DNA from: Cymodocea nodosa
Lineage: Eukaryota > Streptophyta > Magnoliopsida > Alismatales > Cymodoceaceae
Length of the DNA: 64,000 nucleotides
NCBI GenBank assembly: GCA_036874045.1
Contig: CM072341.1
Coordinates: 1,066,501 to 1,130,500, forward strand
Direction of reading: 5' to 3'
Shown: positions 16,691-40,359 of the stretch, piece by piece
How positions within the stretch are numbered: position 1 is the first letter of the stretch
How the letters are laid out: each line of letters starts with the position of its first letter
Made by a program: the position numbers and the translations under genes
The notes under the pieces: model-generated
What the model was told of the DNA's origin: nothing
The model's input: only the letters and a program-made list of their open reading frames with translations
Database searches by the model: none

Positions 16691-16852
16691 TTCTAGTGGT
16701 CTTAAATATATAATAAACAATCAAAATTCTGCCTCATAAACAAAAAATGTACTTAAGTTCATGTATAGATAGCGAAATCATCGTATGAAGTTTCGATTAT
16801 ATCCACCATGGCCATATCCGTAGCCAGAGCCAGAACCAGACCCATGTTGCAT

Positions 16853-17377
16853 TCACCGTCCGTGGCTGCCACCACCTTCACTGCCGCCACCTCCGTCTCC
16901 AGCATGGCCGCCATTGCCAGCACCATATCCAGAGCCACTACCGGAGCCATAACCAGAGGAAAGCCCTAACCCACCATAGTTGCCGCGATCCCTTGCCTCC
17001 CATCCACTTCCATATCCAGATCCATAGCCTCCGCCGCTTCCACCATGAGATCCATCACCGCCTCCCCCACCTCCGCCTCCTCCCCCGCTAGCGTATCCAC
17101 TACGTCCTCCACCCTTTCCGTAACCAGAGCTGGAGCCATAGCCGCTTCCTGGTCCATGACCGGAGCTACCTCCGACACCACCTCCACCGCCACCTTTACT
17201 GTATCCACTCCCACGGCCAGAGTCGTATCCATATTCTCCTCCACGGCCACCATCACCGCCGCCACCACCACCTCCTCCCCCATTGGCATATGCCGTCAGG
17301 ACCCTAGTGGCAGTGATCATGCCAACACAGAGCATGATGAGAAGGGCGACGCTTAGAATTTTGCTGGACCGAGACAT
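16853..17377 (-). CDS. Secreted glycine-rich protein GRP-C, shortened by a stop
   Basis: A 174-residue GRP from the Met at 17377. Signal peptide MSRSSKILSVALLIMLCVGM (then ITAT), followed by RVLTAYANGGGG, closest to GRP-A. The mature part is Gly-rich with Asp and Tyr-containing spacers (GEYGYDSGRGSGY, GGLGLSSGYGSG) and less regular than A. The frame ends at SHGR-TGA. Directly after the stop, the same frame continues with a normal GRP-A-like tail (HGSGSGSGYGYGHGGYN) for about 25 more residues, so the stop removes the conserved C-terminus. The gene may still make a working protein, because the tail is repetitive, or it may be an early pseudogene. No clear TATA box is seen upstream. Confidence 0.75.
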   Translation of the reverse strand: MSRSSKILSVALLIMLCVGMITATRVLTAYANGGGGGGGGGDGGRGGEYGYDSGRGSGYSKGGGGGGVGGSSGHGPGSGYGSSSGYGKGGGRSGYASGGGGGGGGGGDGSHGGSGGGYGSGYGSGWEARDRGNYGGLGLSSGYGSGSGSGYGAGNGGHAGDGGGGSEGGGSHGR

Positions 17378-17479
17378 TTGCTTGGTTAGTTCATTTGCTT
17401 GTGGCAAGGATGAATGGTGATGGATGAGCTGAGCTGGGCTGTGGAGATGGCGTTCTCAGTGGTATTTCTAGGACTTTGA

Positions 17480-18030
17480 TGATTCCTGTGTGCTTGCATT
17501 CATTGGTGTGAAAATTTGAATCATTTGCAGTGGTAGGAGCAGTGAAGCTTGACTTGGAATCACGTGTTTGAGGCTGATTGAGATAAGATGGAATATGTAA
17601 GTCAAGGTAGATAGAGATGCATGGTTTTGCGGGCTGCATTTGTACTTTATGGATAAGTCACTCTCATGTGTAGAAATACCTGGATGTTTCTGCCGAAGGT
17701 GGAGATTGGAATGCGTTGTAGGCATTGAATATATTACCGGAATAATCATATTGAAATACCCGCGCTTATTGCTACACGGGTCCCATGCATCTACTGGATG
17801 AGATAAGGCACTTGGTCATTTGTTTGGTATTGACTTGACTTCTTCTAGTGAAAGGAATATTACCAAAGCTAACCACACAAGAGTTTCCCACACCTTGCAA
17901 TACCGTGTTGTCGTAAGCTTCCCTAGCCAACGTATTATTAGACGCACGTCTGACTAAAGAGTTAGATAATGTTTGCATTATCTCTTTTTCTCAACGAAAA
18001 TTGTTGTTGGTAGGCTTTCATTTTTGATCC
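17480..18030 (-). repeat. GRP-C upstream region
   Basis: The part 17654-17995 matches 48368-48650, and 17880-17960 also matches 50925-51020 ('accttgcaataccg.gttgtcgtaagcttcc'). It contains no gene. The match shows that GRP-C flanks are shared with the right module, where GRP-C itself is missing. Confidence 0.6.
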
Positions 18031-18645
18031 ATATATAGTAGATGTGTCAATTGGGTCGGGCCATTGTAGGTCGGTTTAGTCTAACCTGTTATGGGTTAGT
18101 TCAACCCAATCCAATTTAAAAAATTAGGTTAGATTGGACTATAATATATTAGAAAATTAATCTATAAGTCGGATTCACCTGCGGACAGATTTGGATCGGG
18201 TCGGGCTGACCCATGGGCCAATTTGAGTCGGGTCAGGCTGGCCCATAGGTCAATTCGAGCTCAACTTGTATTAGGTTAAAACTTAAAAACGAACGTTACG
18301 AACATCGAAAACAACATTCGTAAAAAAAGTAAATGTTGAAACAACAGTAAAAAAGAAGAAGAAGTCTAAGCATTATTTCAATGTTAGTAAAAAATGAACA
18401 TTGAAATAATGTTTGTAAAAAATGAACGTTGAAACCAATGGTAAAAAAAGGAAAAAAAGAAAAAGACAAGAGAAGGGATGAAAGAGAGAGAGGAATGTAG
18501 ATGAAAAATCTATAAATAGAGAAGAATGTTAGAATTTTTTTCACAATTCATACTCATTCAATCTTCTCTCTTTCTTTCACAAAATACAAAGATCATATTT
18601 TAGGCTTCAACTTTCTTCAACTCTCAAGTTAGATTCTTTGCAAAA

Positions 18646-20619
18646 ATGGCACACAACTTCAATGACTTCATCTTCAATAGCACTATCGATGCTGACGATA
18701 ATTTTGAGTAGGAACAACAATACTCTCAAGTTTAAACTATAGAAGAAGGTAGAGCATCGACTTCAACTACTACTGCTAAAACAAGAAGAAGGTCAAATTT
18801 ATGGTCAAAGTTTACAATAAAGATGAAAGAGTTGGGAGATGGTACTATGGTGGAGAGGGCCTACAACAACATTTGCAATGCAGACTTTTCATGCAAAGCT
18901 TTAGGTAGTACAAGTCATTTATCTAGACATGTAGTTAGTTGTTCGTCCAAAAATCTTGAAAAAAATAAAATGATTCAAACACAACTTAATTTTAGCACTG
19001 AAGGTAATATAATACAATGACATTATAATCCTAGTAATGCTAGAGAATTACATGCTAAATTTATTGCTGTTCAAAATTTACCTATTAATTTTGGTGATAA
19101 TCAACATTTTCAAGAATATATTTCACAAGCTTATTGTCCACAGTTTAAAAAAGTTTCTAGAAATACAACTAGGCAAGATATTATTGAACTTTATAATAAA
19201 CTTAGAATGGAATTAGTTAGTATAATAGGTTCTATTAACACATCTATAGCATGCACATCTAATATTTGGGAGGGTAAAAGTAAAGCAGGATATATTGCTA
19301 TTACTACACATTTTATTGATGATAATTGTGTTTTACAAAAAAGATTAATAGCATTTAGAAGAATAAATCATCCACATAATGCTCAAAATATTTTTTCTAC
19401 TGTTATGGAAATTTTTGAATTTTATGAAATTGAAGAAAAAGTAGGTAGTATTACATTTGATAATGCAACTATCCCTATGTTTAAAAGTAGATTAACTCCA
19501 CTAAATGGTTTTGATTTATTTCACCAAAGATGTATATGTCATATAATTAATCTTATAGTTCAAGTAGGTGTTGAAGAATTAAAACATTTTCTAGAAAATA
19601 ATAGAATTGCATTAGGTTATATTTTATCTAGTGGTAGACGATAATAAGAATTTAATCATGTATGTGATTCATTTGAATTATCACATAAAACATTTACAAT
19701 GGATGTCTCTCATAGGTGGAATTCATTATATTTAATGTTAAATAATTATTTACCTTATAAAGAAGCTATAAAAGCTTATTATAATGGTAGAATAGATAAT
19801 AGTACAACACCACTAGATGAAAATGATTTTGCAATAACTAATTGTTTTATTGAATTTTTAAAATCATTTTATAATGCAATAGAACATTTATCAGGAATAT
19901 ATTATTGTACATCTATTTATGCAATCCACCACTTATATAATATTGCAAGAGTTTTTAATAATTATAGTAATTATCCATTTTTTGCACCTATAGTTTTAAA
20001 AATGAAAGAGAAATTTTTAAAATATTGGAATAAAATACCTCTCTTATATACATTAAGTGCTTGTTTAGATCCTAGGACTAAAGTAAAAGTTGTTAAAAAA
20101 ATTAATAAATGGAATACAAACTTGTTTAAATTTAGAACTTGATGTAACAATTAAAAATGTAGAAGAAAGTTTAAATAATATGTTTGATATGTATGTTATA
20201 AAATATGGAATACAACAACAAACACAAAATATGCTTTATTTTTCACACCATCGTCATCATCTTTAATAATTGATTATAGTTGATTTGATAATGAATATAG
20301 TGATTTTAATGTAATAAATAGGAAAGAATTAAATAATTTTAATAATACTAATCATACCTATTTAATAAGAGATAATCCTGATTTTCTAAATTTTGATGTA
20401 ATAAATTGGTAGAAAATACAAAAATGCACATTTCCTATTTTATCATTAATGTCTAGAGATTTACTAACAATTCCAACTTCTTCTGTAGCATGTGAACAAA
20501 CATTTTGTATTAGTAGTAATATATTATATAATAGAAGAGTATAATTAAAACATGATATTTTAGAAACATTAATGTATGTTAAAGATTGGGAGCTTGCTCG
20601 TATTCGTGGACAACAATAG
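18646..20619 (+). pseudogene. hAT transposase pseudogene
   Basis: In order: a BED-type zinc finger (about 18840-18940, FSCKALGSTSHLSRH), the catalytic core with SNIWEGKSKAGYIAITTHFI (the conserved 'T.D.W' region, here N for the usual Asp context) and SITFDNA (about 19450), the CxxH-like segment RCICHIINLIV (about 19530), MDVSHRWNSLYLML (about 19700), and the C-terminal dimerisation block LLTIPTSSVACEQTF (about 20460-20510). One frame runs from the ATG to about 20140 with in-frame stops early (before the BED finger), at 19018 and at 19642-19647. A shift after about 20130 moves the C-terminus to another frame. A normal protein of this type is about 650-700 aa. Confidence 0.85.
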
Positions 20620-20959
20620 AAAGATAACTTATGAATTTGCAAATTTAAATATTTAAATGTAATTATGTAAATTAAATGTAAATATATTTTATGTAATTAC
20701 AAAAATAATATAATTTTTAATTTAAATTTAAAAATAAAATAATTATTTTAACTTTATGACTTATCTTTGAATGTGTTGATGGATGATGACTGATGAATTA
20801 TGAATGGTTCGTTGATGATGTCATGATATTGATATTAATGTGATGAATGAATCATGACTTATGTTTGATTTTCATATATTTATAAATAAAATATTGTATT
20901 TGAACAATGAATTGATTATCAGATAACATTGTAATTTTTTTATTTTTTATTTTAATTTA

Positions 20960-21540
20960 AAATCAAAGTAAATAAAATAAAAAATGGTCAGATCGATGAA
21001 AAAATAAAAACAAAATTAGAAAATGGTCAGACCAATGAAAAAATAAAAAAATCAATTTGATCGAAGGCAAGATATAGTTTGACCAAAAAAAATAAAAAAA
21101 TAAAAAACTTCAGTTAGTTAGATCAAAGAAAAAAATAAAGAAAATAGTTAGAGTGTTAGACAGTTAGATTGATGAAAAAATAAAAATAAAAAACATAAAA
21201 AAAAACATCAGTCTAACCAAAGGTGAGACATGATCTGATCGAAGAAAAAAATAAAAAAATAAAAAACATCGGTCTAACGGAAGGTAAGATACAATCTGAC
21301 AAAAAAAAAAAAAAAAAACTTCAACCTAAAAAAAATAAAAGAAAAAAAAAGCTTCTATCAATTAGATTGAAGCCAAGCTTGGGTGAGACCGACGTAAAAA
21401 TACAAAATATAAAATTGAGCGACCTAGCTAATAGACACCCAATCGAGATACAAACTAGACTAGGTTGTCTCAAAAATATTTTGAACCTAGCTAACCTATC
21501 ACAAAAAGATAAAAAAAATTTCAGCTCGGCCCAGCCCGAC
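20960..21540. repeat. hAT subterminal repeat region
   Basis: About ten loose copies of a 30-45 base motif, 'gatcgatgaaaaaataaaaa' or '(g/a)tctaaccaaaggtgagac' type, next to the right end. Such subterminal arrays are known as transposase binding regions in hAT elements. The mirror copy is at 37300-38050. Confidence 0.5.
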
Positions 21541-21608
21541 CTATAGGCTAAACAAGTTGCTATTTTTTGGGTCAGGTTGCCCCGCCCATTGACACCTCTA
21601 ATATATAG

Positions 21609-22940
21609 ATGGGTTCTATGGAGGCATAAACAGTAATAATCCAAATTAATTAACATAACTTATCCAAAGTTATTTAGATAATTTATATTCATACATAAGA
21701 CAATTTATAAAATATTATTTAATATCATCGTCTATATATTTTGACATTATCATGCCCTATTTGTATCAAAATATAAATCTTATTGATAGTTTTTCTTCTT
21801 ATCTAGGAGTCCTTAATATATTATATATATATATGTAAATAGTTTATACTCTTGCTTAAGAGTATCAAATATATTATATGTTTATATATATATATAAACA
21901 TTTTATACTTTTGTTTAAGAATATTTAACATATCTCATATATTTTGACATCTTATATTTTGTTTGAATCAAAATATAAATTTTTACAAATAGTTTATACT
22001 CATATTCAGGAGTATTTAATATATCTTATTTTTTAATATGTAAATAGTTTATACTCTTGTTGAGAAGTATTGAATATATTATATATATTTGTTTTTTTAT
22101 ATATAAACAGTTTATACTCTTGTTTAGGAGTATTAAATATATATTATATACTTTTTTATATGTAAATAGTTTATACTTTTGTTTAGGAGTATTTTATATA
22201 TTTTTTTATGTAAATAGTTTATACTCTTATTTAGGAGTATTAAATATATTTATCATTTTAATAATTTCCATTTATATTTTGATCTTTTATATACTTATGT
22301 TACCTTTTGGGTATCTAAATTTATATTATATATATATGTATTTCCCATAAGAACATCATCAATTCAATTCAAATATTTATTTTTAATGTATTTTGATAAA
22401 ATATGTTCATATATATATATTTACATATTCATTAATTCGTTGTTCCTTGTATTATTATTATATTATATATATATATTTTTGTTGGAATATGATCGACCAA
22501 GTTTATTTGAGTCAGTTGTTCTTGTTTCATATGTTTTATATTATGTGCCAAAGTACCGTATATTATGTATTAATTATCATTCTTTTAAAATACTTATACA
22601 CATATCTAAAAGATTTAATTTTATTGTTATTATTATTATTTTTAGATATTCACATTTAATACCTACCATATATTAATTCTAATTTAAACCTTTGGTCCGA
22701 CCCTTGGATTGGATCAAAATTTAAGAAAACGAAGGGAGGAGGATGACTCCATCGACATCCACCTTCCTTATAATATTTCTTTTAAAAATTATAAAAGATG
22801 GTAACTCCATTGATGTTTATCTTCCTTATATTTTATAAAAAAATGGTAAAATATTAAGAGATAGCAACTCATCGGTGTGCAAACAAACCTAAACCAATGT
22901 GGTGATTCATCTTTTATTTGTTACAATTAATTTTACTAAT
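21609..22940. repeat. AT-rich tandem repeat block
   Basis: Between about 21800 and 22250 a unit of about 60-65 bases ('tgtaaatagtttatactcttgtttaggagtattaaatatat') is repeated about seven times with drift. The remainder to 22940 is AT-rich. The Tyr/Ile-rich open frames here come from composition. The mirror copy is at 35850-37225, with one extra unit. Confidence 0.6.
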
Positions 22941-22944
22941 TTCA

Positions 22945-23680
22945 AAGAATAAACAACTACGTACATGGCTTTAGATTTCCATCAAATCAGAAGTGTATGT
23001 GAGCTTTGAGTCACTTGATAAATGCATTGACACCTAACGCCTGTGCGGGCACTTCATTTGCGTGAGCTTTACTCATTCTTGCTTTTCCTTCGATCATCCA
23101 ATGGTACTGTAAACGAGCCAAATTTGTGTACAGTTGTCCATTATAAGAAATAACAGTTAATATGTGAAAAGAGATAACCCATTGGTAACCTATGCCATTA
23201 TCTACACAGTTGCTCAAGTAGCTTTGTAATCGAATTTAGGTTTCCATCAATTCACACTTTAGAAGCGTGTGAGAGATTTTCCTCTCTTGACATTTAATGC
23301 ATTGGCACCTAACGCAATTTTATATATAGCTAGGGAACTTCATTTGCATGAGCTATGGTTAGGTGTCAATTGTATAGCTTTAATCTAGTTGAATTCGAGT
23401 ACAACGCTCCATTATAAGAAACAACAGTTAATAAGTCAAAAGAGACAACGCATTGGTACCCCATGCCACACGTAGTTGCTTAAACAACTTCGTACGAGGA
23501 TTTGAATTTTCATCGATCCCTTCACACTTGAGATGTACATGTGATCTTTAACTCACTTGAAAAATGCATTGACACCTAACCCTGGTGCGCATAGCTTGAG
23601 AACTTCATTTGCATGAGCTTTTACTTATTCTTGTTTTTGGTTCAATCATAATTTGTGTAACCCTAGAAACATTGTAAAGA
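22945..23680. repeat. Three diverged ~270-base repeats
   Basis: Three copies in a row, starting near 22950, 23218 and 23460. Each has 'tttccatcaat/a', 'cacttgataaatgcattgacacctaacgc', 'acttcatttgc(g/a)tgagct' and 'taagaaa(t/c)aacagttaat'. Related copies lie at 48685-48910, 51075-51250 and 55690-55870, always near a GRP unit. No coding potential. Confidence 0.55.
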
Positions 23681-25120
23681 GAGAGAAGAGAGATACTATT
23701 TTCAACCCTTTGGGGTTCCACTACTATTAGGTGAAAAAATGAGAAGAAATGAAGTCACCATTTAGTACAATTCTAAGGATAAAATAGTATATGCAAATGC
23801 AAGTGAAGTAAACGACCTTCAAAAATATAAGAGTATGACCTTAAAAACTATAAATTAATCTAGGTAAGTACTTCAAGTACGTATAAGCAAGGTGTTGGTC
23901 ACCTCACAAGCTTAAATTACTTAACCTCTAAAGTTATCTTAGTTAAGTAGGCTAGTCTTCAGCATCTAAGGTTATGCGTTCTAAATGATTGCAAAGTGAG
24001 CTAAAGTATAACATAGAGAAAATAAGAGAAATGGGTCCATGGGTGCCCATATGAGATGAAATAAATGAGAAATAAGTGAAGATATAAGAATAAAAGATCC
24101 TAAGAAGTCTGGAAGAGATGGAGAAGTTGTGTCTTGGTTTTCCTTTCGTGTGTAAGTGTGATGTGAAAAAAGACAGCCTAAGTGCTTTTGCATGGTAAGC
24201 ATGAATTCAAAATAAGTATTTCGAGACGGTCATTTTAAAATTAAATGTAGATTTTTAATTATCAATGTAAATTATGTAATGTAATTTTTATTCATCATAT
24301 GTAAATTTCTTGATAAATGATGTATCTTTTCTATAATTCATAAATTCAATAAATGTAATTATTATTTCTTATTTAATTTAATGAATAATGATTAATACTT
24401 TTTTCAATATCTTTAAATAATAATTTGAATGTATGGTACAATATTGAGATTTCTTAAAGATTATGAAGTCAAATCTCATCAACTTACTTTAAACAAATAA
24501 AATATTTTTGAATCCCATTTGATCGCCCAACCCACACTCGATCGAAGACCTACATAGCGGCCCATACCGATGGACTTCTCCTGCTCACGTTGACCAACCC
24601 ATCTGCATCGTGCCGATATGATAAGTAGAGATTGCACGAACAAATTAACGTCGTACATGACATAACTAATTAGATTAATATTTACAACTTACTTCTATAA
24701 ACATATAATATGTGAATAATGTTCATATGTATTCTTAGTAAACAATTCTATTTCAAAATTTTAATTTTAATAAACACCTATATCCTCTTCAATTCAATAT
24801 TGTGATCTTAAATATATATATAGATGTTTTATAATATAAGGAACCAACCCACAACTCACTACAAAATTCAATCAGGTCGTTAAAATTCTATCCAAATAGG
24901 TGTGGTTATTACATTTGAATCGAATCATGTGTACTCCTAACAAAGTTTCATAAATACATTTGTGTGCGATTAGATTTGTATAAAATATTATGATTTTTCA
25001 CACAAGGAATGAGAGGTGAAGACGAATTATAGATCCCGTGCATTCGATTAACAAAGGACTTATTTTCTGGAGAAAAAGGTATTTGCTTCGCATAACAAAA
25101 TAATATGTGCACAGAATACA
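23681..25120. other. Intergenic DNA of the left arm
   Basis: No gene is supported. 23928-24370 matches 48912-49340 and 25005 onward matches 49353 onward, so it belongs to the duplicated GRP module. The short open frame near 24000-24200 is copied in the other arm but has no recognisable features. Confidence 0.45.
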
Positions 25121-25513
25121 GAGATTGCCATATGCTTGTCTTTCACCAAAATTTGAATTGATATTTATTATTTCTCACTTGAGACAATCATGTTAGACGT
25201 CTAAGTTTGAGTAAGATGCTCAATTCCTCAGTTGAGTTGGACACAAATTAACTAAATTAGACAGGATTAAACAAATACATAAGAAATAACAAAGAGAAGG
25301 TAAATTACTTCGACATGGGCGTCATGCACGCATACATCTCACAACCATTAAGATCTTTATTTAATTATCATGTCAATGCATGTCGTAGCACGCAAGCATC
25401 TTCTTTATTTTTTGTGTTACATACATAACATGAGATTGAAATTACGCCCCTGCAATGAAAATAAAGATCGATACAAGTATTTCCCATATTTGACCATCAA
25501 AAGAAGTGGAGTT

Positions 25514-25957
25514 TCAAGGGTAGTATCCACCACGAGCGTATCCGTGGCCGGAGCCCGAACCAGACCCATATCCAGACCCACCGTGGCTGCCACCACCACC
25601 TCCTCCTCCGCCACCGCCTCCTCCAGCTCTAGCATAGCCGCCGTTGCCAACAGCATATCCGGAGCCACTACCGGATCCATAGCCGGAACCACTTCCGCCA
25701 TGAGATCCACCACCACCTCCACCGCCTCCACCTCCACCACCCGCGCTGGCGTATCCACCACGTCCTCCAGCATGTCCGTAACCAGAGCCAGAGCCAGAGC
25801 CGTATCCAGATCCTCCTCCACGGCCACCGCCACCACCTCCGCCTCCTCCTCCTCCTCCTCCACTGGCATATGCCGTCAAGACCCTAGTGGCAGTGGTCAT
25901 GCCCAAACAGAACATGAGGAGAAGGGCGACACTTACAACTTTTCCGAACCTCGCCAT
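25514..25957 (-). CDS. Secreted glycine-rich cell-wall protein, GRP-A copy 2 (left arm)
   Basis: 147 residues, one Gly fewer than copy 1 in the first Gly run, otherwise the same: signal peptide (residues 1-24), RVLTAYASG, three Gly-run/SGYGSGSGSGYG modules, RGGYYP end. Its protein is identical to the gene at 32826-33269 in the opposite arm. Start, leader and TATA box match the other A copies. The gene looks intact and its flanks contain the full set of family upstream DNA. Confidence 0.88.
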   Translation of the reverse strand: MARFGKVVSVALLLMFCLGMTTATRVLTAYASGGGGGGGGGGGGGRGGGSGYGSGSGSGYGHAGGRGGYASAGGGGGGGGGGGGSHGGSGSGYGSGSGSGYAVGNGGYARAGGGGGGGGGGGGSHGGSGYGSGSGSGHGYARGGYYP

Positions 25958-26034
25958 CCTTTGTTTCTCTAGTTTTCAGAACGTCTTGAGAGAAAAGTGA
26001 GATGGCTGTGATCAGTTTCGGACCACATTGTTGG

Positions 26035-26044
26035 CTATTTATAG
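26035..26044 (-). promoter_or_regulatory. TATA box of GRP-A2
   Basis: CTATAAATAG, 78 bases before the start codon; mirrors 32739-32748. Confidence 0.75.
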
Positions 26045-27014
26045 GGTTTTCTTCCGTTCTTGCACCAATTTTTAACGTTGAAGAAAACCCACAGGAATCT
26101 TAGAATACAAACAGACAATAATATATATGTGTCACAACCTGGCCATATCGTCGAGAAATAATAAATGAATATCTAATCATTGTGCTAAAGGTCAACACCA
26201 TACCAACTTGCAAACTTAAGAAGCAATCGTGATGTCCCGTAAGTCAATAGAAATTAGAAAATAGTCCCGCTCTCTAGAAATCTGAAGGGCCAATCCGAAT
26301 CTGTGCTGGTGGATTTTGACTGGAATTTGCTGAATAGACCTAATCTTTTCTAATTCGGAATAATGAGCGGTGAAGCTTGAGTTGGAATTACTTGTTGGAG
26401 GTATGAGTAAGATAAGATGGATGGAGTATAAAAGTGATCAAATACAAGACTTTGAAGTGAATAATAATAAATTAAAGTATTAGGTCGATGGAAATTGATT
26501 AACAAAATGTTAGGCAAATAAATTGCAATTGACTGTATATGGAGGTGCATTGTTTGTGGGTTGCATCTGTTGGATGAGTTTTGGCATTTGGTCATTTGTT
26601 TGGTATTCTTTACTTCTTCTATCAGAAGGAATGCCAATCCTCACCAGAAGACTCAGCTACACCTTGCAATGCCGTGTTGTCGTCGGTGGATTTTTACTGA
26701 AATTTGCGGAATTAAATAATCTTCTCTATGTTCATGCAGCTAATCCCATCTCAACGTAATTTTAGTATATCCACCATCCAAGCACAAGCGTTTAATTATA
26801 TCAAATACGCAAATGAATCATTGAGTGGGATTTGGGCCATCCGGCGCTGGTGGAAGTTGTTGCTTCCATTACCAAACGGACGAAGTTCCAAAGGAATGAC
26901 CCGTGCGATCCACTCCAGTTACCGTGTGTGTGACTCTTGAGTAGAGTAGTAGATTTTAGGGGTGAAATGACCAAGTCTTCTCATGGGATGGAAAAATTAC
27001 ATATCAACTAGTAA
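26045..27014 (-). repeat. GRP-A upstream region, copy 2
   Basis: Family upstream DNA, the most complete copy together with 61480-61740: it continues through 'attgagtgggatttgggccatccggcgctgg' and 'caaaggaatgac' to 'catgggatggaaaaattacatatcaact', where the arm ends. Confidence 0.7.
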
Positions 27015-28150
27015 ATTTTATTCTGTCAAACTAGACATTAGAGATACCATCATATCTTGCAAAACGACCTATGAAATCTAGGAAGATTTGAAAGAAAACT
27101 ATCGACAAACCAGTATATCTCAAATATATCAAATAAAAAAGGAGATTTCTGCGTGCAAAGAGGAGACGAACATTCATTGTTGCGGTCGGTCGTGCGGTGC
27201 CAAAGCCCTTCGTCTTCCCATTGTGTGGTCTATCGGTCGTTGACTGGGCGACGGGCTCGGACATTTGTTTTCCAACGAAATTGAGGTCGATTTGAAGAAG
27301 TTCGACGAGCTCGAGTGTTGGCTTCTTGTTTGGCAGTTGGTGGGTTCGTGAAGAAGAAAAAGAAGAGGAGAAGAAGAAAAAAAGAAAAGGAAAAAGAAGA
27401 AAAAGGAAGATAGAGGTCTCTCTTATGTTGTTACTTCATAAAAATTGTGTTAAGTATATCATTGATCATCTTAATGCATGCAATATTAGTATAATTTTTT
27501 TCTTGTAATTATTATTACTCGAAGGATGATTAAATTACTTGAAATTGGTTCAATTAGTAACATTGGAAATTATGAGTTTTACCGCATACTAGTTTTGTTG
27601 TGATCTTTTGATTCATATATCATTTCATTAATTGGTGTCATGATATGTTTATTGTCTTGTGTTATTAAATTTGGTTTCGTGTTGATCTAGCCATAGGTAG
27701 TTGTATTGTGATATTGTGTACATAATGAGACGTGTTGTTTAACCTCATCTCAAAGTTTGGGTAGCCAATGGGTCTCGTCATCAGGTTACGAGTGACATAT
27801 CCTGTTGTAGGGTTAAATACAAACATAGTAAATTTATTAGTGACAATGTTATTTTAAGATTGATGACCCTGTTGATGTGCATGCATATGATTCTTGCTGG
27901 TTTGATTTTGAAATTGGTAGTTTTAGGCATTCCTTCTTATAAGAGTATCGTATTGAATTTACTTGCTGTCATGGTTGTTATATTTAAATTGAACATGCGT
28001 TATATTGAGATTTATATAATATATTTATTAAGCTTCGCTCCTAAAAATTCCCTCTTTTAGGCCTTTAAAAAGACTAACCAATGAACTAGGGCCAAAGGCA
28101 AAGCTTCTAACTTCTCTTAGGTTGCAATGGTAACCCTCTTTAAGGACAAA
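27015..28150. other. Spacer of the inverted repeat, left part
   Basis: Single-copy in this window. A purine-rich stretch (about 27345-27410) gives a Lys/Glu-rich frame without gene features. No gene is supported. Confidence 0.4.
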
Positions 28151-28152
28151 AG

Positions 28153-30235: not shown

Positions 30236-30650
30236 TTCCTTCGGTCTGAGGTTACAAGGAAAGTAAAAGATAAGAAATTAACATTGCAATTTAATTGAGC
30301 CTTATTTAATTAAGGCCCCTTGGTTACAGTAAAAAGTGACAAAGAAGAGTAAAACCCAAGCTCCGAAAATGACTTATATTTCAAGCCCTTTAGTTATGGT
30401 AAAAAAACTAAGGGAGCAAAAAACAAGAAGTCAAAAATGACTTATATTAAGGAGGTCAAAATTGCACTTGGAGCTATATTAAAGTTTCTTAAACCCTATA
30501 ATATCTTTCTATTTACAACAAGGATATTTTAAGAGGAAAAGGTGATGCCGTTAATAGGGCATATTTTACTTTCAGTCCATTACCCAACATTAGTAAAATG
30601 TATAATCTTGTTGTAGAAGAGAAGTAACGTGTTGTTGCTAATTAATACTT
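30236..30650. other. Short spacer between copia fragments
   Basis: Contains two related blocks ('aaggccccttggttacagtaaaaa' at 30313 and 'caagccctttagttatggtaaaaaa' at 30382) that could be the edge of a small DNA transposon. No boundaries can be set and no gene is seen. Confidence 0.3.
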
Positions 30651-31690
30651 TTAAGCATATTGATAATTTAACCATTATGGTCAGGATAGAGGAAGAAATA
30701 GCAACAATAAAAATAATACCTCAAGAAACTCCAAGAAATAATTATGTATAACTTGTGGGAAAATTCTATGAGATTAATAGCTTCATCAAAGACAAAAACT
30801 ACATAAAATGTTTCTTACGAAGTAGTCTTTAATGCAAAATGTTAGTAACAGCTAGCAGAAATACCTTTCCTCAAATTGTTGTTCCAGATAATGATAAAGG
30901 CAATGCCTCTCCTCCAATTACTTAAGGGCAGTACGATCAACTTGCAAGTCTTTTAAATGCTTCAGCTCTAAACAATTAGCCCATGTTTAATACGATTGGT
31001 TTTAAATACTGCTTAACATCGAGGCATCTTGTAAATCCTGTTAAAATATTTCTACATATTTTGCCTCAGTCAAAAAAGATATTTAAATTATAAGTACAAG
31101 TTTTACCGATCATATGTATTGTAATTTGAATTTTATTCATAATAGTAATAAAATCTATGATATGCGGTATGTCAAACTACCAAAATGAAGACTTAGGAAA
31201 TATTAGTTTTGTTGGAACAACTGTTGTTACTGAAGATCTTTACCTTACTAATGTTTTATATATACTAACTTTTAACTTCGACCTTATATCAATGAGTAAA
31301 TTATCTGAAGGAATTGATTGCAGCATAAATTTCTTTTTTCTTATATGCTTTAATCAAGATTTTGAATCTTGGACAATGATTGACATTGGTAAGGAGGTGT
31401 GTGATTTCCACATTCTCATCATAAACATTTAAAATCTGGAAATCCTAACAGCAATTTTAAAGAATCTAAAAGCTTAGACATCCCTTGGATTACAAAGCTC
31501 TTCGAAACTTACCAATGCATTTTACTAATAAAAGGATTAAAAAATCTTATTCTATTTGCCCTTTAGCAAAACTCCACCGTTTACCTTTTCAAACTAGTAG
31601 AAATAAAGTTTATAAACCTTTTGACCGGGTCGACATGATGAGGCTTGATCCACTTGATATATATATTCTACTTAAGTTATTGAAGCAACC
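30650..31690 (+). mobile_element. Second Ty1/copia fragment (gag tail to GAG-pre-integrase)
   Basis: Different copia lineage from the piece to its left. It runs from a gag tail (about 30685-30770), through protease-like sequence with LTNVLYILTFNFDLISMSKL (about 31240-31310), to a GAG-pre-integrase zinc region (about 31490-31610). The same fragment lies beside GRP upstream DNA at 56404-57350 and 62790-63990 in the same relative direction. Broken. Confidence 0.7.
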
Positions 31691-32738
31691 GCGACATTAG
31701 AAAGTGGTGTAGTATAAAGTGACATTTGATTGTAAGAGTATTTTTTTTAAATAGTATTTTACATTTTTAGCCTTTTCCCAATGTATCCAAGAGAAAAACA
31801 TAACTCGCTAGTTGATACGTAATTTTTCCATCCCATGAAAAGACTTGGCCATTTCACCCCTAAAATCTACTACTCTACTCGAGTCACACACACGGTAATT
31901 GGAGTGGATCGCACCGGTCATTCCTTTGGAACTTCGTCCGTTTTGTAATGGAAGCAACAACTTCCACCAGCGCCGGATGGCATATAATTAAACTCTTGTG
32001 CTTGGATGGTGGATATACTAAAATTACGTTCGGATGGGATCAGCTGCATGAACATAGAGAAGATTATTTAATACCGCAAATTTCAGTAAAAATCCACCGA
32101 CGACAACACGGCATTGCAAGGTGTAGCTGAGTCTTCTGGTGAGGATTGGCATTCCTTCGGATAGAAGAAGTAAAGAATACCAAACAAATGACCAAATGCC
32201 AAAACTCATCCAACAGATGCAACCCACAAACAATGCACCTCCATATACAGTCAATTGCAATTTATTTGCCTAACATTTTGTTAATCAATTTCCATCGACC
32301 TAATACTTTAATTTATTATTATTCACTTCAAAGTCTTGTATTTGATCACTTTTATACTCCATCCATCTTATCTTACTCATACCTCCAACAAGTAATTCCA
32401 ACTCAAGCTTCACCGCTCATTATTCCGAATTAGAAAAGATTAGGTCTATTCAGCAAATTCCAGTCAAAATCCACCAGCACAGATTCGGATTGGCCCTTCA
32501 GATTTCTAGAGAGCGGGACTATTTTCTAATTTCTATTGACTTACGGGACATCACGATTGCTTCTTAAGTTTGCAAGTTGGTATGGTGTTGACCTTTAGCA
32601 CAATGATTAGATATTCATTTATTATTTCTCGACGATATGGCCAGGTTGTGACACATATATATTATTGTCAGTTTGTATTCTAAGATTCCTGTGGGTTTTC
32701 TTCAACGTTAAAAATTGGTGCAAGAACGGAAGAAAACC
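31691..32738 (+). repeat. GRP-A upstream region, copy 2'
   Basis: Mirror of 26045-27014. Its outermost part, 31691-31807, also matches 61735-61850 reversed, so the ancestral unit reached past the present end of the left arm. A few single-base differences from the left arm cluster in 31850-32120. Confidence 0.7.
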
Positions 32739-32748
32739 CTATAAATAG
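32739..32748 (+). promoter_or_regulatory. TATA box of GRP-A2'
   Basis: CTATAAATAG, 78 bases before the start codon, on the plus strand. Confidence 0.75.
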
Positions 32749-32825
32749 CCAACAATGTGGTCCGAAACTGATCACAGCCATCTCACTTTTCTCTCAAGAC
32801 GTTCTGAAAACTAGAGAAACAAAGG

Positions 32826-33269
32826 ATGGCGAGGTTCGGAAAAGTTGTAAGTGTCGCCCTTCTCCTCATGTTCTGTTTGGGCATGACCACTGCCACTAGG
32901 GTCTTGACGGCATATGCCAGTGGAGGAGGAGGAGGAGGAGGCGGAGGTGGTGGCGGTGGCCGTGGAGGAGGATCTGGATACGGCTCTGGCTCTGGCTCTG
33001 GTTACGGACATGCTGGAGGACGTGGTGGATACGCCAGCGCGGGTGGTGGAGGTGGAGGCGGTGGAGGTGGTGGTGGATCTCATGGCGGAAGTGGTTCCGG
33101 CTATGGATCCGGTAGTGGCTCCGGATATGCTGTTGGCAACGGCGGCTATGCTAGAGCTGGAGGAGGCGGTGGCGGAGGAGGAGGTGGTGGTGGCAGCCAC
33201 GGTGGGTCTGGATATGGGTCTGGTTCGGGCTCCGGCCACGGATACGCTCGTGGTGGATACTACCCTTGA
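32826..33269 (+). CDS. Secreted glycine-rich cell-wall protein, GRP-A copy 2' (right arm)
   Basis: The only GRP gene on the plus strand. Its 147-residue protein is identical to that at 25514-25957, including the signal peptide, the Gly runs and the RGGYYP end. It has its own TATA box, leader and 3' region with AATAAA (about 33373), so it can be expressed independently. It and copy 2 point toward the outside of the palindrome, with their 5' ends facing the spacer (divergent, about 6.9 kb between starts). Confidence 0.88.
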   Translation: MARFGKVVSVALLLMFCLGMTTATRVLTAYASGGGGGGGGGGGGGRGGGSGYGSGSGSGYGHAGGRGGYASAGGGGGGGGGGGGSHGGSGSGYGSGSGSGYAVGNGGYARAGGGGGGGGGGGGSHGGSGYGSGSGSGHGYARGGYYP

Positions 33270-36200
33270 AACTCCACTTCTTTTGATGGTCAAATATGGG
33301 AAATACTTGTATCGATCTTTATTTTCATTGCAGGGGCGTAATTTCAATCTCATGTTATGTATGTAACACAAAAAATAAAGAAGATGCTTGCGTGCTACGA
33401 CATGCATTGACATGATAATTAAATAAAGATCTTAATGGTTGTGAGATGTATGCGTGCATGACGCCCATGTCGAAGTAATTTACCTTCTCTTTGTTATTTC
33501 TTATGTATTTGTTTAATCCTGTCTAATTTAGTTAATTTGTGTCCAACTCAACTGAGGAATTGAGCATCTTACTCAAACTTAGACGTCTAACATGATTGTC
33601 TCAAGTGAGAAATAATAAATATCAATTCAAATTTTGGTGAAAGACAAGCATATGGCAATCTCTGTATTCTGTGCACATATTATTTTGTTATGCGAAGCAA
33701 ATACCTTTTTCTCCAGAAAATAAGTCCTTTGTTAATCGAATGCACGGGATCTATAATTCGTCTTCACCTCTCATTCCTTGTGTGAAAAATCATAATATTT
33801 TATACAAATCTAATCGCACACAAATGTATTTATGAAACTTTGTTAGGAGTACACATGATTCGATTCAAATGTAATAACCACACCTATTTGGATAGAATTT
33901 TAACGACCTGATTGAATTTTGTAGTGAGTTGTGGGTTGGTTCCTTATATTATAAAACATCTATATATATATTTAAGATCACAATATTGAATTGAAGAGGA
34001 TATAGGTGTTTATTAAAATTAAAATTTTGAAATAGAATTGTTTACTAAGAATACATATGAACATTATTCACATATTATATGTTTATAGAAGTAAGTTGTA
34101 AATATTAATCTAATTAGTTATGTCATGTACGACGTTAATTTGTTCGTGCAATCTCTACTTATCATATCGGCACGATGCAGATGGGTTGGTCAACGTGAGC
34201 AGGAGAAGTCCATCGGTATGGGCCGCTATGTAGGTCTTCGATCGAGTGTGGGTTGGGCGATCAAATGGGATTCAAAAATATTTTATTTGTTTAAAGTAAG
34301 TTGATGAGATTTGACTTCATAATCTTTAAGAAATCTCAATATTGTACCATACATTCAAATTATTATTTAAAGATATTGAAAAAAGTATTAATCATCATTC
34401 ATTAAATTAAATAAGAAATAATAATTACATTTATTGAATTTATGAATTATAGAAAAGATACATCATTTATCAAGAAATTTACATATGATGAATAAAAATT
34501 ACATTACATAATTTACATTGATAATTAAAAATCTACATTTAATTTTAAAATGACCGTCTCGAAATACTTATTTTGAATTCATGCTTACCATGCAAAAGCA
34601 CTTAGGCTGTCTTTTTTCACATCACACTTACACACGAAAGGAAAACCAAGACACAACTTCTCCATCTCTTCCAGACTTCTTAGGATCTTTTATTCTTATA
34701 TCTTCACTTATTTCTCATTTATTTCATCTCATATGGGCACCCATGGACCCATTTCTCTTATTTTCTCTATGTTATACTTTAGCTCACTTTGCAATCATTT
34801 AGAACGCATAACCTTAGATGCTGAAGACTAGCCTACTTAACTAAGATAACTTTAGAGGTTAAGTAATTTAAGCTTGTGAGGTGACCAACACCTTGCTTAT
34901 ACGTACTTGAAGTACTTACCTAGATTAATTTATAGTTTTTAAGGTCATACTCTTATATTTTTGAAGGTCGTTTACTTCACTTGCATTTGCATATACTATT
35001 TTATCCTTAGAATTGTACTAAATGGTGACTTCATTTCTTATTTTTTCACCTAATAGTAGTGGAACCCCAAAGGGTTGAAAATAGTATCTCTCTTCTCTCT
35101 CTTTACAATGTTTCTAGGGTTACACAAATTATGATTGAACCAAAAACAAGAATAAGTAAAAGCTCATGCAAATGAAGTTCTCAAGCTATGCGCACCAGGG
35201 TTAGGTGTCAATGCATTTTTCAAGTGAGTTAAAGATCACATGTACATCTCAAGTGTGAATGGATCGATGAAAATTCAAATCCTCGTACGAAGTTGTTTAA
35301 GCAACTACGTGTGGCATGGGGTACCAATGCGTTGTCTCTTTTGACTTATTAACTGTTGTTTCTTATAATGGAGCGTTGTACTCGAATTCAACTAGATTAA
35401 AGCTATACAATTGACACCTAACCATAGCTCATGCAAATGAAGTTCCCTAGCTATATATAAAATTGCGTTAGGTGCCAATGCATTAAATGTCAAGAGAGGA
35501 AAATCTCTCACACGCTTCTAAAGTGTGAATTGATGGAAACCTAAATTCGATTACAAAGCTACTTGAGCAACTGTGTAGATAATGGCATAGGTTACCAATG
35601 GGTTATCTCTTTTCACATATTAACTGTTATTTCTTATAATGGACAACTGTACACAAATTTGGCTCGTTTACAGTACCATTGGATGATCGAAGGAAAAGCA
35701 AGAATGAGTAAAGCTCACGCAAATGAAGTGCCCGCACAGGCGTTAGGTGTCAATGCATTTATCAAGTGACTCAAAGCTCACATACACTTCTGATTTGATG
35801 GAAATCTAAAGCCATGTACGTAGTTGTTTATTCTTTGAAATTAGTAAAATTAATTGTAACAAATAAAAGATGAATCACCACATTGGTTTAGGTTTGTTTG
35901 CACACCGATGAGTTGCTATCTCTTAATATTTTACCATTTTTTTATAAAATATAAGGAAGATAAACATCAATGGAGTTACCATCTTTTATAATTTTTAAAA
36001 GAAATATTATAAGGAAGGTGGATGTCGATGGAGTCATCCTCCTCCCTTCGTTTTCTTAAATTTTGATCCAATCCAAGGGTCGGACCAAAGGTTTAAATTA
36101 GAATTAATATATGGTAGGTATTAAATGTGAATATCTAAAAATAATAATAATAACAATAAAATTAAATCTTTTAGATATGTGTATAAGTATTTTAAAAGAA

Positions 36201-37225
36201 TGATAATTAATACATAATATACGGTACTTTGGCACATAATATAAAACATATGAAACAAGAACAACTGACTCAAATAAACTTGGTCGATCATATTCCAACA
36301 AAAATATATATATATAATATAATAATAATACAAGGAACAACGAATTAATGAATATGTAAATATATATATATGAACATATTTTATCAAAATACATTAAAAA
36401 TAAATATTTGAATTGAATTGATGATGTTCTTATGGGAAATACATATATATATAATATAAATTTAGATACCCAAAAGGTAACATAAGTATATAAAAGATCA
36501 AAATATAAATGGAAATTATTAAAATGATAAATATATTTAATACTCCTAAATAAGAGTATAAACTATTTACATAAAAAAATATATAAAATACTCCTAAACA
36601 AAAGTATAAACTATTTACATATAAAAAAGTATATAATATATATTTAATACTCCTAAACAAGAGTATAAATTGTTTATATATAAAAAAACAAATATATATA
36701 ATATATTCAATACTTCTCAACAAGAGTATAAATATTTACATATTAAAAAATAAGATATATTAAATACTCCTGAATATGAGTATAAACTATTTACATATTA
36801 AAAAATAAGATATATTAAATACTCCTGAATATGAGTATAAACTATTTGTAAAAATTTATATTTTGATTCAAACAAAATATAAGATGTCAAAATATATGAG
36901 ATATGTTAAATATTCTTAAACAAAAGTATAAAATGTTTATATATATATATAAACATATAATATATTTGATACTCTTAAGCAAGAGTATAAACTATTTACA
37001 TATATATATATAATATATTAAGGACTCCTAGATAAGAAGAAAAACTATCAATAAGATTTATATTTTGATACAAATAGGGCATGATAATGTCAAAATATAT
37101 AGACGATGATATTAAATAATATTTTATAAATTGTCTTATGTATGAATATAAATTATCTAAATAACTTTGGATAAGTTATGTTAATTAATTTGGATTATTA
37201 CTGTTTATGCCTCCATAGAATCCAT
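33270..37225. repeat. Right-arm intergenic DNA
   Basis: Mirror of 21609-25513: GRP-A 3' region (to about 33420), unassigned DNA, three ~270-base repeats, then the AT-rich tandem block at 36530-37020. No additional gene is seen. Confidence 0.6.
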
Positions 37226-37233
37226 CTATATAT

Positions 37234-40200
37234 TAGAGGTGTCAATGGGCGGGGCAACCTGACCCAAAAAATAGCAACTTGTTTAGGCTATAGGTCGGGC
37301 TGGGCCAAGCTGAAAATTTTTTTTATCTTTTTGTGGTAGCTTAGCTAGGTTCAAAATATTTTTGAGACAAACTAACCCAGTTTGTACCTCGATTGGGTGG
37401 CTACTAGCTAGCTCGCTCAATTTTATATTTTGTATTTTTTTTATTTTTATGTCGGTCTCAATGAAGTTTGGCTTTAGTCTGATCGACAGAATCTTTTTAT
37501 TTTTTTTATTTTTTTCTTTGATCAAATTGAAGCTCAACTTCGATTTGATCGATAGAAATTTTTTTTATTTGATTAGATCGAACCTCAACTTTGATCTAAC
37601 TGAAGCTTTTATATTTTGTATTTTTTTTATTTTTATGTTAGTCTCACCAAAGCTTGGCTTCGATTTGACTAGCAAAAGATTTTTTTTCTTTTATTTTTTT
37701 CTTCAATTAGATCGAAGCTCAACTTTGGTTCGATTGGTTAGACTATATCTTACCTTCGGTTAGATTGATGTTTTTTATTTTTTCTTTCGGCCAGATCATG
37801 TCTCACCTTTGGTTAGATCGATGCCTTTTTTTATATTTTTTATTTTTATTTTTTCATCGATCTAACCGTATAACACTATAACTATTGTTTTCATTTTTTT
37901 CTTCGATCTACCTAACTTAAGTTTTTTTTATTTTTATTTTTTTTCGGTTAGACTATATCTTGCCTTCGATCAAATTGATTTTTTTATTTTTTCATCGGTC
38001 TAACCATTTTCTAATTTTTTTTTATTTTTTCATCGATCTAACCATTTTTTATTTTATTTATTTATTTATTTTGATTTTAAATTAAAAAAAAAAAATTACA
38101 ATGTTTTCTGATAATCAATTCATTGTTCAAATACATTATTTTATTTATAAATATATGAAAATCAAACGTAAGTCATGATTCATTCATCACATTAAAATCA
38201 ATATCAATACATCATCAATGAACCATTCATAATTCATCAATCATCATCCATCAACACATTCAAAGACAAGTCATAAAGTTAAAATAATTATTTTATTTCT
38301 AAATTTAAATTAAAAATTACATTATTTTTGTAATTACATCAAATATATTTACATTTAATTTACATAATTATATTTAAATATTTAAATTTGCAAATTCATC
38401 AATGAAGTCATCTTTCTGTTGTTATCCACGAATACAAGCAAGCTCCAAATCTTTAACTCACATTAATGTTTCTAAAATATCATGTTTTAATCATGCTCTT
38501 TTATTATATAATATATTACCACTAATACTAAATGTCTTCACATGCTACAGAAGAAGTTAGAATTGTTAGTAAATCTCTAGTCATTAATGATAAAATAGGA
38601 AATGTGCATTTTTGTGTTTTCTACCAATTTATTACATCAAAATTTAGAAAATCAGGATTATCTATTATTAAATAGCTATGATTAGTATTATTAAAATTAT
38701 TTAATTCTTTCCTATTTATTACATTAAAATCACTATATTCATCATCAAATCAACTATAATCAATTATTAATGATGATGATGATGGTGTGAAAAATAAGTG
38801 GTGGATTGCATAAATAGATGTACAATAATATATTCCTAATAAATGTTCTATTGCATTATAAAATGATTTTAAAAATTCAATAAAACAATTAGTTATTGCA
38901 AAATCATTTTCATCTAGTGGTGTTGTACTATTATCTATTCTACCATTATAATAAGCTTTTATAGCTTCTTTATAAGGTAAACAATTATTTAACATTAAAT
39001 ATAATGAATTCCACCTATGAGAGACATCCATTGTAAATGTTTTATGTGGTAATTCAGATGAATCACATACATGATTAAATTCTTATTGTCGTATACCACT
39101 AGATAAAATATAACTTAATGCAATTCTAATATTTTCTAGAAAAGGTTTTAATTCTTCAACACCTACTTGAACCATAAAATTAATTATATGACATATACAT
39201 CTTTGGTGAAATAAATCAAAACCATTTAGTGGAGTTAATCTACTTTTAAACATAGGGATAGTTGCATTATCAAATGTAATACTACCTACTTTTTCTTTAA
39301 TTTCATAAAATTCAAAAATTTCCATAAGAGTAGAAATAATATTTTGAGCATTATGTGGATGATTTATTCTTCTAAATGCTATTAATCTTTTTTGTAAAAC
39401 CCAATTATCATCAATAAAATGTGTAGTAATAGCAATATATCCTGTTTTACTTTTACCCTCCTAATTATTAGATGTGCATGCTATAGATGTGTTAATAGAA
39501 CCTATTATACTAACTAATTTTATTCTATGTTTATTATAAAGTTCAATAATATCTTGCCTAGTTGTATTTCTAGAAACTTTTTTAAATCGTGGACAATAAG
39601 CTTATGAAATATATTCTTTAAAATGTTGATTAACACCAAAATTAATAGCTAAATTTTGAACAGCAATAAATTTAACATGTAATTCTCTAGCATTACTAGG
39701 ATTATAATGTCATTGTATTATATTATCTTCAGTGCTAAAATTAAGTTGTGTTTGAATCATTTTATTTTTTTCAAGATTTTTGGACGAATAACAAACTACA
39801 TGTCTAGATAAATGACTTGTACTACCTAAAGCTTTGCATGAAAAGTTTGCATTGCAAATGTTGTAGTAGTCCCTCTCCACCACAGTACCATCTCCCAGCT
39901 CTTTCATCTTTATTGTAAACTTTGACCATAAATTTGACCTTCTTCTTGTTTTAGTAGTAGTAGTTGAAGTCGATGCTCTACCTTCTTCTATAGTTTAAGC
40001 TTGAGAGTATTGTTGTTCCTACTCAAAATTATCGTCAGCATCGATAGTGCTATTGAAGATGAAGTCATTGAAGTTGTGTGTCATTTTTGCAAAGAATCTA
40101 GCTTGAGAGTTGAAGAAAGTTGAAGCCTAAAAGATGATCTTTGTATTTTGTGAAAGAAAGAGAGAAGATTGAATGAGTATGAATTGTGAAAAAAATTCTA

Positions 40201-40353
40201 ACATTATTCTATATTTATAGATTTTTTCATCACCATTCCTCTCTCCCTTTCATCCCTTCTCTTGTCTTTTTCTTTTTCCCTTTTTTTATCGTTGAAACAT
40301 TTTTTACGAACATTATTTCAATGTTCATTTTTTACCAACATTGAAATAATGTT
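37234..40353 (-). mobile_element. hAT DNA transposon, copy 1', left end deleted
   Basis: Reverse copy of 18370-21600 at the same insertion site: the target sequence CTATATAT (reverse of ATATATAG) lies at 37226-37233 beside the TAGAGGTGTCAATGGGC end. About 330 bases of the other end are missing. The transposase remnant runs 40084 to about 38415 and shares old stops with copy 1 (for example after NIIQ), so it was already dead before duplication. Coding DNA differs by about 3%, the subterminal T-rich part by more. Confidence 0.85.
38415..40084 (-). pseudogene. hAT transposase pseudogene, copy 1'
   Basis: BED finger (about 39790-39890), SITFDNA (about 39260), MDVSHRWNSLYLML (about 39030) and the C-terminal dimerisation region (about 38530-38600) are recognisable. 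Stops seen in copy 1 recur here. About 280 bases present in copy 1 (20000-20240, the 'KMKEKFLKYWNKIPLLYTLSACLDPRTK' part) are missing near 38800. Not functional. Confidence 0.8.
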
Positions 40354-40359
40354 TAAGGC

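What the first reader, a model, noticed from the sequence alone, without database searches (positions are those of the whole stretch)
18370..40353. Giant inverted repeat with two identical GRP-A genes
Arms of about 8.6 kb (18370-27014 and 31808-40353) flank a 4.8-kb spacer. The GRP-A proteins at 25514 and 32826 are identical. Long palindromes of this size are unstable and rarely assembled correctly, so this is either a young rearrangement or an assembly join of two haplotypes. The spacer and the different outer junctions argue for a real event.
Basis: seen in the sequence. Interest (0 to 1): 0.8.

Follow-up and report, generated by a model that had tools for sequence, protein, structure and literature searches.

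The report
Old gene palindrome, recently re-copied middle
A plant DNA segment carrying a glycine-rich protein gene was duplicated in mirror image long ago, and one arm later seems to have overwritten the middle of the other, so that two old gene copies look newly identical; this is a known kind of event, seen here unusually clearly.

Summary
The inverted repeat is real in the sequence: 18367-27011 against 40355-31808, with a 4,796-bp spacer and two identical GRP-A genes. It is neither evenly young nor a simple join of two haplotypes. Identity is a mosaic: 6 mismatches in 5,159 aligned bases in a core (L 21548-26709), about 4-6% outside it on both sides, with private indels. Both arms carry the same hAT transposon, complete in the left arm; in the right it is cut about 330 bp inside its outer end and joined to an HSP70 fragment that also matches 12709-13450. 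The duplicated block was thus larger, at least 14.3 kb on the left, and the right copy lost about 4.9 kb with two GRP genes (inferred). The right 1.1 kb of the spacer is the right arm's own ancestral flank, placing the junction at 27011|27012. Best reading: an old inverted duplication with an asymmetric junction, its core recently homogenised by arm-to-arm gene conversion. Assembly error cannot be excluded without reads. A new member of a known kind; moderate interest.

The parts
18367..27011 (+). left arm of the inverted repeat
31808..40355 (-). right arm of the inverted repeat
27012..31807 (.). spacer, 4,796 bp; 30724-31631 and 31699-31805 match the flanks of other GRP units; 29283-29786 encodes Copia gag-pre-integrase/integrase pieces; 27012-28370 and 28463-30684 have no match in the window
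21548..26709 (+). left copy of the near-identical core (inferred conversion tract): 6 mismatches in 5,159 aligned bases, one 54-bp tandem unit and one 3-bp indel
32074..37286 (-). right copy of the near-identical core
25514..25957 (-). GRP-A gene, left arm, 147 aa (glycine-rich; N terminus signal-like by eye; no Pfam match at E 0.01)
32826..33269 (+). GRP-A gene, right arm, identical; head-to-head with the left copy across the spacer
18039..21600 (+). hAT transposon, 3,562 bp, TIRs TAGATGTGTCAA / TTGACACCTCTA, 8-bp TSD ATATATAG at 18031-18038 and 21601-21608; transposase interrupted by stops
37234..40355 (-). the hAT copy of the right arm: same inner TIR and flank, truncated about 330 bp inside its outer end
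12709..13450 (+). HSP70 C-terminal fragment, outer part of the duplicated block on the left
   Evidence: match to 41102-40360
40360..41102 (-). inverted copy of that HSP70 fragment (PF00012 positions 381-593), joined to the truncated hAT copy
13451..18366 (+). left stretch absent from the right copy (inferred deletion of about 4.9 kb, with GRP genes at 14270-14830 and 16853-17377)
27011..27012 (.). inferred junction of the inverted duplication: the left arm breaks off here while the right arm's unit goes on into the spacer
2623..4243 (+). direct paralogue unit U1, with a patch like U4 in sequence otherwise like U2
49355..50849 (+). direct paralogue unit U3 with a GRP-A gene at 49855-50298 (-)
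54079..55616 (+). direct paralogue unit U4 with a GRP-A gene at 54486-54929 (-)

Best explanation
This is an old inverted duplication inside a tandem array of plant glycine-rich protein genes, whose middle was recently homogenised by arm-to-arm gene conversion. Order of events: (1) a hAT element inserted in the ancestral unit [inferred from the same inner end and flank in both arms]. (2) A block of at least 12709-27011 was duplicated in inverted orientation, with an asymmetric junction at 27011|27012. The right 1.1 kb of the spacer is shown to be the right unit's own flank; that the rest of the spacer is too, present once because two sister ends broken some 4.8 kb apart were joined, is inferred. 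(3) The right copy lost about 4.9 kb, with two GRP genes and the outer 330 bp of the hAT [inferred]. (4) The arms diverged by about 4% and gained private indels [shown]. (5) A tract of about 5.2 kb, from the end of the hAT to about 26.7 kb, was copied from one arm onto the other in one or several events, so that GRP-A became identical again [inferred from the sharp drop to 0.1%]. A few changes came later [shown]. The direction of copying is unknown. The two genes point away from each other across the spacer, so their own transcription should not run through the palindrome [inferred].
For: Core 6/5,159 mismatches against 88/2,217 in the hAT transposase part (Fisher p 3.5e-39), 11/266 at the inner end (p 3e-11) and 16/743 in the HSP70 piece (p 1e-10). 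Longest stretch with at most 5 mismatches 5,093 columns, against at most 1,124 in 5,000 shuffles. About 3.6 kb of the core is AT-rich non-genic DNA (27.6% GC, like the hAT at 26.5%), so selection on the gene does not explain it. Of 90 hAT differences, a third copy polarised 67: 36 on R, 31 on L; C>T and G>A make 18 of 67. Spacer 31631-30724 matches 56445-57343, 31611-30793 matches 62791-63628 and 31805-31699 matches 61738-61841, in the orientation of the right arm's unit. U1 has a run of 9 U4-like sites among 54 informative ones (0 of 20,000 shuffles).
Against: No reads, no relative species, no whole genome. The inner hAT end and its flank, which argue for one shared insertion, lie inside the core, so they could themselves have been copied; the inner end of the arms (11/266) is then the main independent sign of age. 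The HSP70 pair is unevenly diverged (mismatches per fifth 6, 7, 1, 1, 1) and a poor clock. Of seven other pairs or sub-pairs tested, four also have clustered mismatches, so patchiness is common here, though on a scale of 0.3-0.5 kb. Of five unit triplets tested for mosaicism, only the U1/U2/U4 one was significant by runs, and the cleaned test was made on that one alone. Spacer 27012-28370 and 28463-30684 have no match in the window. Junction microhomology cannot be read, as one partner sequence is not in the window.
Confidence: 0.67

Rival explanations
1. The whole palindrome is one recent duplication, and the divergent outer and inner patches arose afterwards by conversion from other, older copies of hAT, GRP-upstream and HSP70 sequence elsewhere in the genome.
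For: Exchange between paralogues is supported in this array (U1). The HSP70 pair has only 3 mismatches in its inner three fifths. The hAT end shared by the arms lies inside the core.
Against: It needs at least two separate overwritings, on both sides of the core. The polarised hAT differences split 36/31 between the arms. The one other hAT copy that self-BLAST found in the window is about 22% diverged (473 and 478 of 2,176 sites), so a closer donor would have to lie outside.
Confidence: 0.13
2. Assembly artefact: a false join, or a consensus copied from one arm to the other, makes the inverted repeat or its near-identical core where the genome has something else (two haplotypes, two distant loci, or a true palindrome with wrongly merged cores).
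For: Cores of about 5.2 kb can be merged, or the spacer between them flipped, if reads were shorter than that; no reads are available. Palindromic chimeras are a documented artefact of amplified DNA (PMC6218980, abstract and outline seen).
Against: Chimeric fold-back reads would give arms alike along their length; these differ by about 4-6% with private indels outside the core, and the core itself has 6 mismatches, a 54-bp and a 3-bp indel. The outer flanks compared are not allelic. The right 1.1 kb of the spacer matches other units' flanks. The window has no N.
Confidence: 0.13
3. The hAT element made the inverted duplication directly, by alternative transposition using transposon ends, as described for duplications at maize Ac/Ds.
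For: A hAT element lies at the outer edge of both arms, and Ac elements can make duplications, in the paper seen tandem direct ones (PMC3744419, abstract and outline).
Against: That mechanism puts 8-bp target duplications at the breakpoints (same abstract). Here the right copy is cut about 330 bp inside the element, homology continues beyond it into HSP70, and the inner junction is 5.4 kb from the nearer hAT end.
Confidence: 0.03
4. No conversion: one duplication of a single age, with the core kept alike by selection or a low local mutation rate.
For: GRP-A copies look constrained (pN 0.006-0.010 against pS 0.08-0.10 in the seven pairs that involve A3 or A4).
Against: Only 444 bp of the 5.2-kb core is GRP-A coding sequence. 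Three pairs of other units compared over the genic part differ by 2.0-4.5%, and about 3.6 kb of the core is AT-rich non-genic sequence.
Confidence: 0.04

Closest known systems
Gene-converting palindromes of the willow (Salix purpurea) W chromosome (PMC7023750, passages read)
   Same: Plant palindrome with kilobase arms and a spacer of a few kb, high identity limited to part of the repeat, LTR fragments in the spacer, arm deletions
   Different: Arms of about 20 kb and longer, in a sex-determining region, with conversion supported by interspecies and depth data. Here the chromosome is unknown and only one sequence is available.
Human Y palindrome P6 (PMC3723533, passages read)
   Same: Arm-to-arm conversion; inferred minimum tracts of up to 9,023 bp (mean 2,068), so a 5.2-kb tract is within range
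   Different: Arms of about 100 kb, over 99.9% similar; population data available
Concerted evolution of plant gene families (recalled; PMC3924838 seen in a search listing, and a term search in it returned no passage)
   Same: Paralogues homogenised in patches, as U1 suggests here
   Different: The strongest event here is between inverted copies and covers mostly non-genic DNA
Ac/Ds alternative-transposition duplications of maize (PMC3744419, abstract and outline)
   Same: A hAT element lies next to a duplication
   Different: Those are tandem direct duplications with 8-bp target duplications at the breakpoints; the breakpoints here are not at hAT termini

Membership tests
Gene-converting palindrome | two large inverted arms with a short single-copy spacer | tested here: met
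   arms 8.6 and 8.5 kb, spacer 4.8 kb
Gene-converting palindrome | arm identity much higher than the age of the duplication allows | tested here: met
   core 0.12% against about 4% on both sides; the age rests on other parts of the same arms
Gene-converting palindrome | arms alike within a species while differing between species | not testable with these tools
   no plant genomes in the collections described; no whole genome held
Gene-converting palindrome | both arms supported by read depth and spanning reads | not testable with these tools
   no reads
Gene-converting palindrome | location on a sex chromosome (typical, not required) | not testable with these tools
   species and chromosome unknown
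hAT DNA transposon (18039-21600) | short terminal inverted repeats and 8-bp target-site duplication | tested here: met
   TIRs at 18039 and 21589-21600, ATATATAG on both sides
hAT DNA transposon (18039-21600) | hAT-type transposase | tested here: met
   PF14372 hAT-like RNase-H, E 3e-11, in one of the two ORF pieces scanned (the other had no match); stops in all frames, so defective
hAT alternative transposition | rearrangement breakpoints at hAT termini with 8-bp target duplication | tested here: not met
   right copy cut about 330 bp inside the element, homology continues into HSP70
Artefactual palindrome from chimeric reads | arms alike along their whole length | tested here: not met
   177 mismatches in 8,279 columns, unevenly placed, with large private indels
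Join of two haplotypes | outer flanks allelic and divergence roughly even | tested here: not met
   40900-44400 against 1-13600 shows no collinear flank beyond the HSP70 piece; mismatches per fifth of the arms 58, 103, 2, 1, 13

The most novel reading that the evidence does not exclude
The palindrome is a standing conversion device for the GRP array: its arms recombine repeatedly, keep a head-to-head pair of GRP-A genes identical while their transposon-laden edges decay, and exchange with the direct copies (U1). If it lies on an ordinary autosome, it would be a plant case of palindrome-driven homogenisation outside a sex-determining region.
Probability: 0.2. Interest if true: 0.5.

Novelty: new member of a known kind. 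Interest (0 to 1): 0.28.

Why it matters
It shows that near-identity of two palindromic gene copies need not mean a recent duplication: dating the event from the core (0.1%) instead of the arm ends (about 4%) would be wrong about 35-fold. It is a compact case in which transposon anatomy, spacer and paralogous units let duplication, deletion and conversion be put in order from one sequence, and it warns against discarding such pairs as haplotype duplicates.

Tried and rejected
hAT alternative transposition as the cause: rejected on the breakpoints. Spacer as a fresh retrotransposon insertion into a perfect palindrome: not supported; only Copia gag-pre-integrase/integrase pieces were found, no repeat pair inside the spacer, and its right 1.1 kb is unit flank. 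Methylation decay as the reason for hAT divergence: not supported, C>T and G>A are 18 of 67 polarised changes, though the outgroup is 22% away. Continuation of the palindrome at 1-99 against 43117-43019 (90.9%): not accepted, because another repeat-like match (8827-9002 against 43646-43469, 69.7%) lies close by; unresolved. An empty hAT site in unit U3: the best alignment of the joined flanks stays left of the join, so no clean empty site. tRNA scan (bacterial code) and Rfam: nothing. A translated (tblastx) comparison of the outer flanks was written into the script but skipped, so outer homology was tested at DNA level only. The species was not identified; no search for it was made beyond. Literature: seven searches, of which I saw the listed rows only (11 to 15 each), showed nothing that I recognised as this locus.

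Papers: PMC7023750 and PMC3723533, passages from a term search; PMC3744419 and PMC6218980, abstract and outline; PMC3924838, search listing, and a term search that returned no passage. Recalled, from no call: the substitution rates used for dates (6.5e-9 and 1.5e-8 per site per year), the sister-end-fusion model, the usual look of hAT ends, and the plant origin (an inference from the gene and transposon content).
Full report
WHAT IS THERE. The window looks like plant nuclear DNA (inferred): a family of glycine-rich protein genes among hAT, Copia and other retroelement fragments. The species is unknown and no whole genome is held. The reported inverted repeat is present, L 18367-27011 against R 40355-31808, with a 4,796-bp spacer. 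The two GRP-A genes are identical in DNA and protein. They point away from each other: left gene on minus, 25957 to 25514; right gene on plus, 32826 to 33269.

IDENTITY IS A MOSAIC. Over 8,279 aligned columns there are 177 mismatches. They are not spread evenly: per fifth of the arm 58, 103, 2, 1, 13. The core, L 21548-26709 / R 37286-32074, has 6 mismatches in 5,159 columns (K 0.0012), plus a 54-bp tandem-repeat unit in R and a 3-bp gap. The hAT transposase part has 88 in 2,217 (K 0.041), the whole hAT part to 21547 has 160 in 2,854 (K 0.058, raised by low-complexity sequence at its end), and the inner end has 11 in 266 (K 0.043). The longest stretch with at most 5 mismatches is 5,093 columns, against at most 1,124 in 5,000 shuffles.

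CONTROLS. asked, for the arms and seven other pairs or sub-pairs, for the longest stretch holding at most one twentieth of the mismatches (at least one). Three of the seven show no marked clustering (HSP70 p 0.07, spacer flank p 0.29, U2/U3 p 0.14). Four do: the B block (0 of 2,000 shuffles), U1/U4 (0 of 2,000), U1/U2 (p 0.007) and the hAT part alone (p 0.0015). In these four the longest quiet stretch is 284 to 455 columns, against 5,211 in the arms. Patchiness is thus common in this array, but nothing else tested approaches this scale.

THE hAT AS A MARKER. In the left arm a complete hAT element lies at 18039-21600, with related 12-base ends and the 8-bp target duplication ATATATAG on each side. 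Of two ORF pieces scanned, one carries the hAT RNase-H domain (PF14372); the reading frames hold stops. The right arm has the same element with the same inner end and flank, so the insertion most simply came before the duplication. A caveat: that inner end lies inside the core and could itself have been copied. With a third, distant hAT copy (51500-54080) as outgroup, 67 of 90 differences in 2,176 three-way columns could be polarised: 36 on R, 31 on L, 23 ambiguous. C>T and G>A make 18 of the 67, so methylation decay does not look like the cause.

THE OUTER EDGE. The right hAT copy is cut about 330 bp inside the element (L 18367-18370) and joined, with a few unmatched bases, to an HSP70 fragment (40360-41102) that is a 97.7% inverted copy of 12709-13450. 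The simplest reading is that the duplicated block reached at least from 12709 to 27011, and that the right copy later lost 13451-18366 with two further GRP genes (14270-14830 and 16853-17377). The HSP70 pair is uneven (6, 7, 1, 1, 1 per fifth), so I do not use it as a clock. Beyond these points the flanks are not alike: 40900-44400 against 1-13600 gave the HSP70 piece, 99 bp at the window's first bases (90.9%), one 178-bp match (69.7%) and short hits (DNA level only).

THE INNER EDGE AND SPACER. Read outward from the right arm's gene, the spacer matches other units in the same orientation. Next to U4, 32107-31982 matches 56293-56418 and 31631-30724 matches 56445-57343; the stretch between is missing there. 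In the 61-64 kb region there are two partial copies: 32108-31699 matches 61408-61841, and further on 31846-31808 matches 62748-62787 followed by 31611-30793 matching 62791-63628. So 31808 is not a natural end: the right unit continues into the spacer for at least 1.1 kb, and the left arm breaks off at 27011. Further in, 28462-28371 matches 63909-64000 at the window's end, and 29283-29786 encodes Copia gag-pre-integrase and integrase pieces. Spacer 27012-28370 and 28463-30684 has no match in the window. The asymmetry is what a fusion of two sister ends broken at different points would give; that mechanism is inferred.

GENE CONVERSION. Two arms that seem to share an old insertion, have changed about equally, and are about 4% apart on both sides of a 5.2-kb core that is 0.1% apart are most simply explained by recent copying of the core from one arm to the other. 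With recalled plant rates, the hAT transposase part and the inner end would date to about 1.4-3.3 million years and the core to 0.04-0.09; the ratio, about 35, is more reliable than the dates. Larger gaps lie near both ends of the core (39 and 154 bp at L 21300-21328, about 220 bp away; 34 bp at L 26802, about 90 bp away), which would fit heterology stopping the exchange. Exchange elsewhere in the family is suggested by U1 (2623-4243): of 54 informative sites between U2 and U4 it matches U2 at 41 and U4 at 13, in 9 runs (p 5e-5), with a run of 9 U4-like sites that 0 of 20,000 shuffles reach. This triplet was the only one of five with significant runs (one other had maximum chi-square p 0.004, the rest did not reach 0.05), and repeats it without the badly aligned sites past 26510. 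All five GRP-A ORFs are uninterrupted; in the seven pairs that involve A3 or A4, pN is 0.006-0.010 and pS 0.08-0.10, so the genes look constrained.

WHAT IS NOT SETTLED. No reads and no relatives were available. An assembler with reads shorter than about 5 kb could have flipped the spacer or merged the cores; full merging would give 100% identity, which is not seen. Direction and number of conversion events are unknown. The most novel reading, a standing palindrome that keeps exchanging with the array, is neither excluded nor shown.

COMPARISON. Palindromes with partial arm-to-arm conversion are known in willow (PMC7023750, passages) and humans (PMC3723533, passages: minimum tracts up to 9,023 bp). 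This is a smaller member of that kind, seen in one sequence. Seven literature searches (listed rows seen) showed nothing that I recognised as this locus.

Noticed in passing
5453-12456: Copia element in minus orientation with LTR-like ends 87.9% alike (5453-5732 and 12181-12456) and a reverse-transcriptase piece at 7009-7440; by eye no matching target duplication, and an apparently unrelated insertion at about 8829-10820.
   Followed up: partly
44247-44876: Array of a degenerate 61-bp tandem repeat, about 10 copies, near the long GRP gene at 45493-46599.
   Followed up: no
45493-46599 and 14270-14830: Related GRP genes of very different length (368 and 186 aa), suggesting internal repeat expansion or contraction.
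   Followed up: no
5330-5451: By eye, a short inverted copy of sequence downstream of GRP-A (about 25381-25480) lies just outside the Copia element's end.
   Followed up: no
1-99 and 43019-43117: 99 bp at the window's left edge match inverted at 90.9%; could be a shared repeat or a sign that the duplicated block goes on outside the window.
   Followed up: partly
22019-22251 and 36529-36847: Minisatellite inside the core; R has one more 54-bp unit than L, a change that probably came after the inferred conversion.
   Followed up: partly
41100-41570: By eye in the translation, an HSP70 N-terminal fragment on the minus strand lies beside the C-terminal fragment at 41102, with the middle of the gene missing.
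   Followed up: partly
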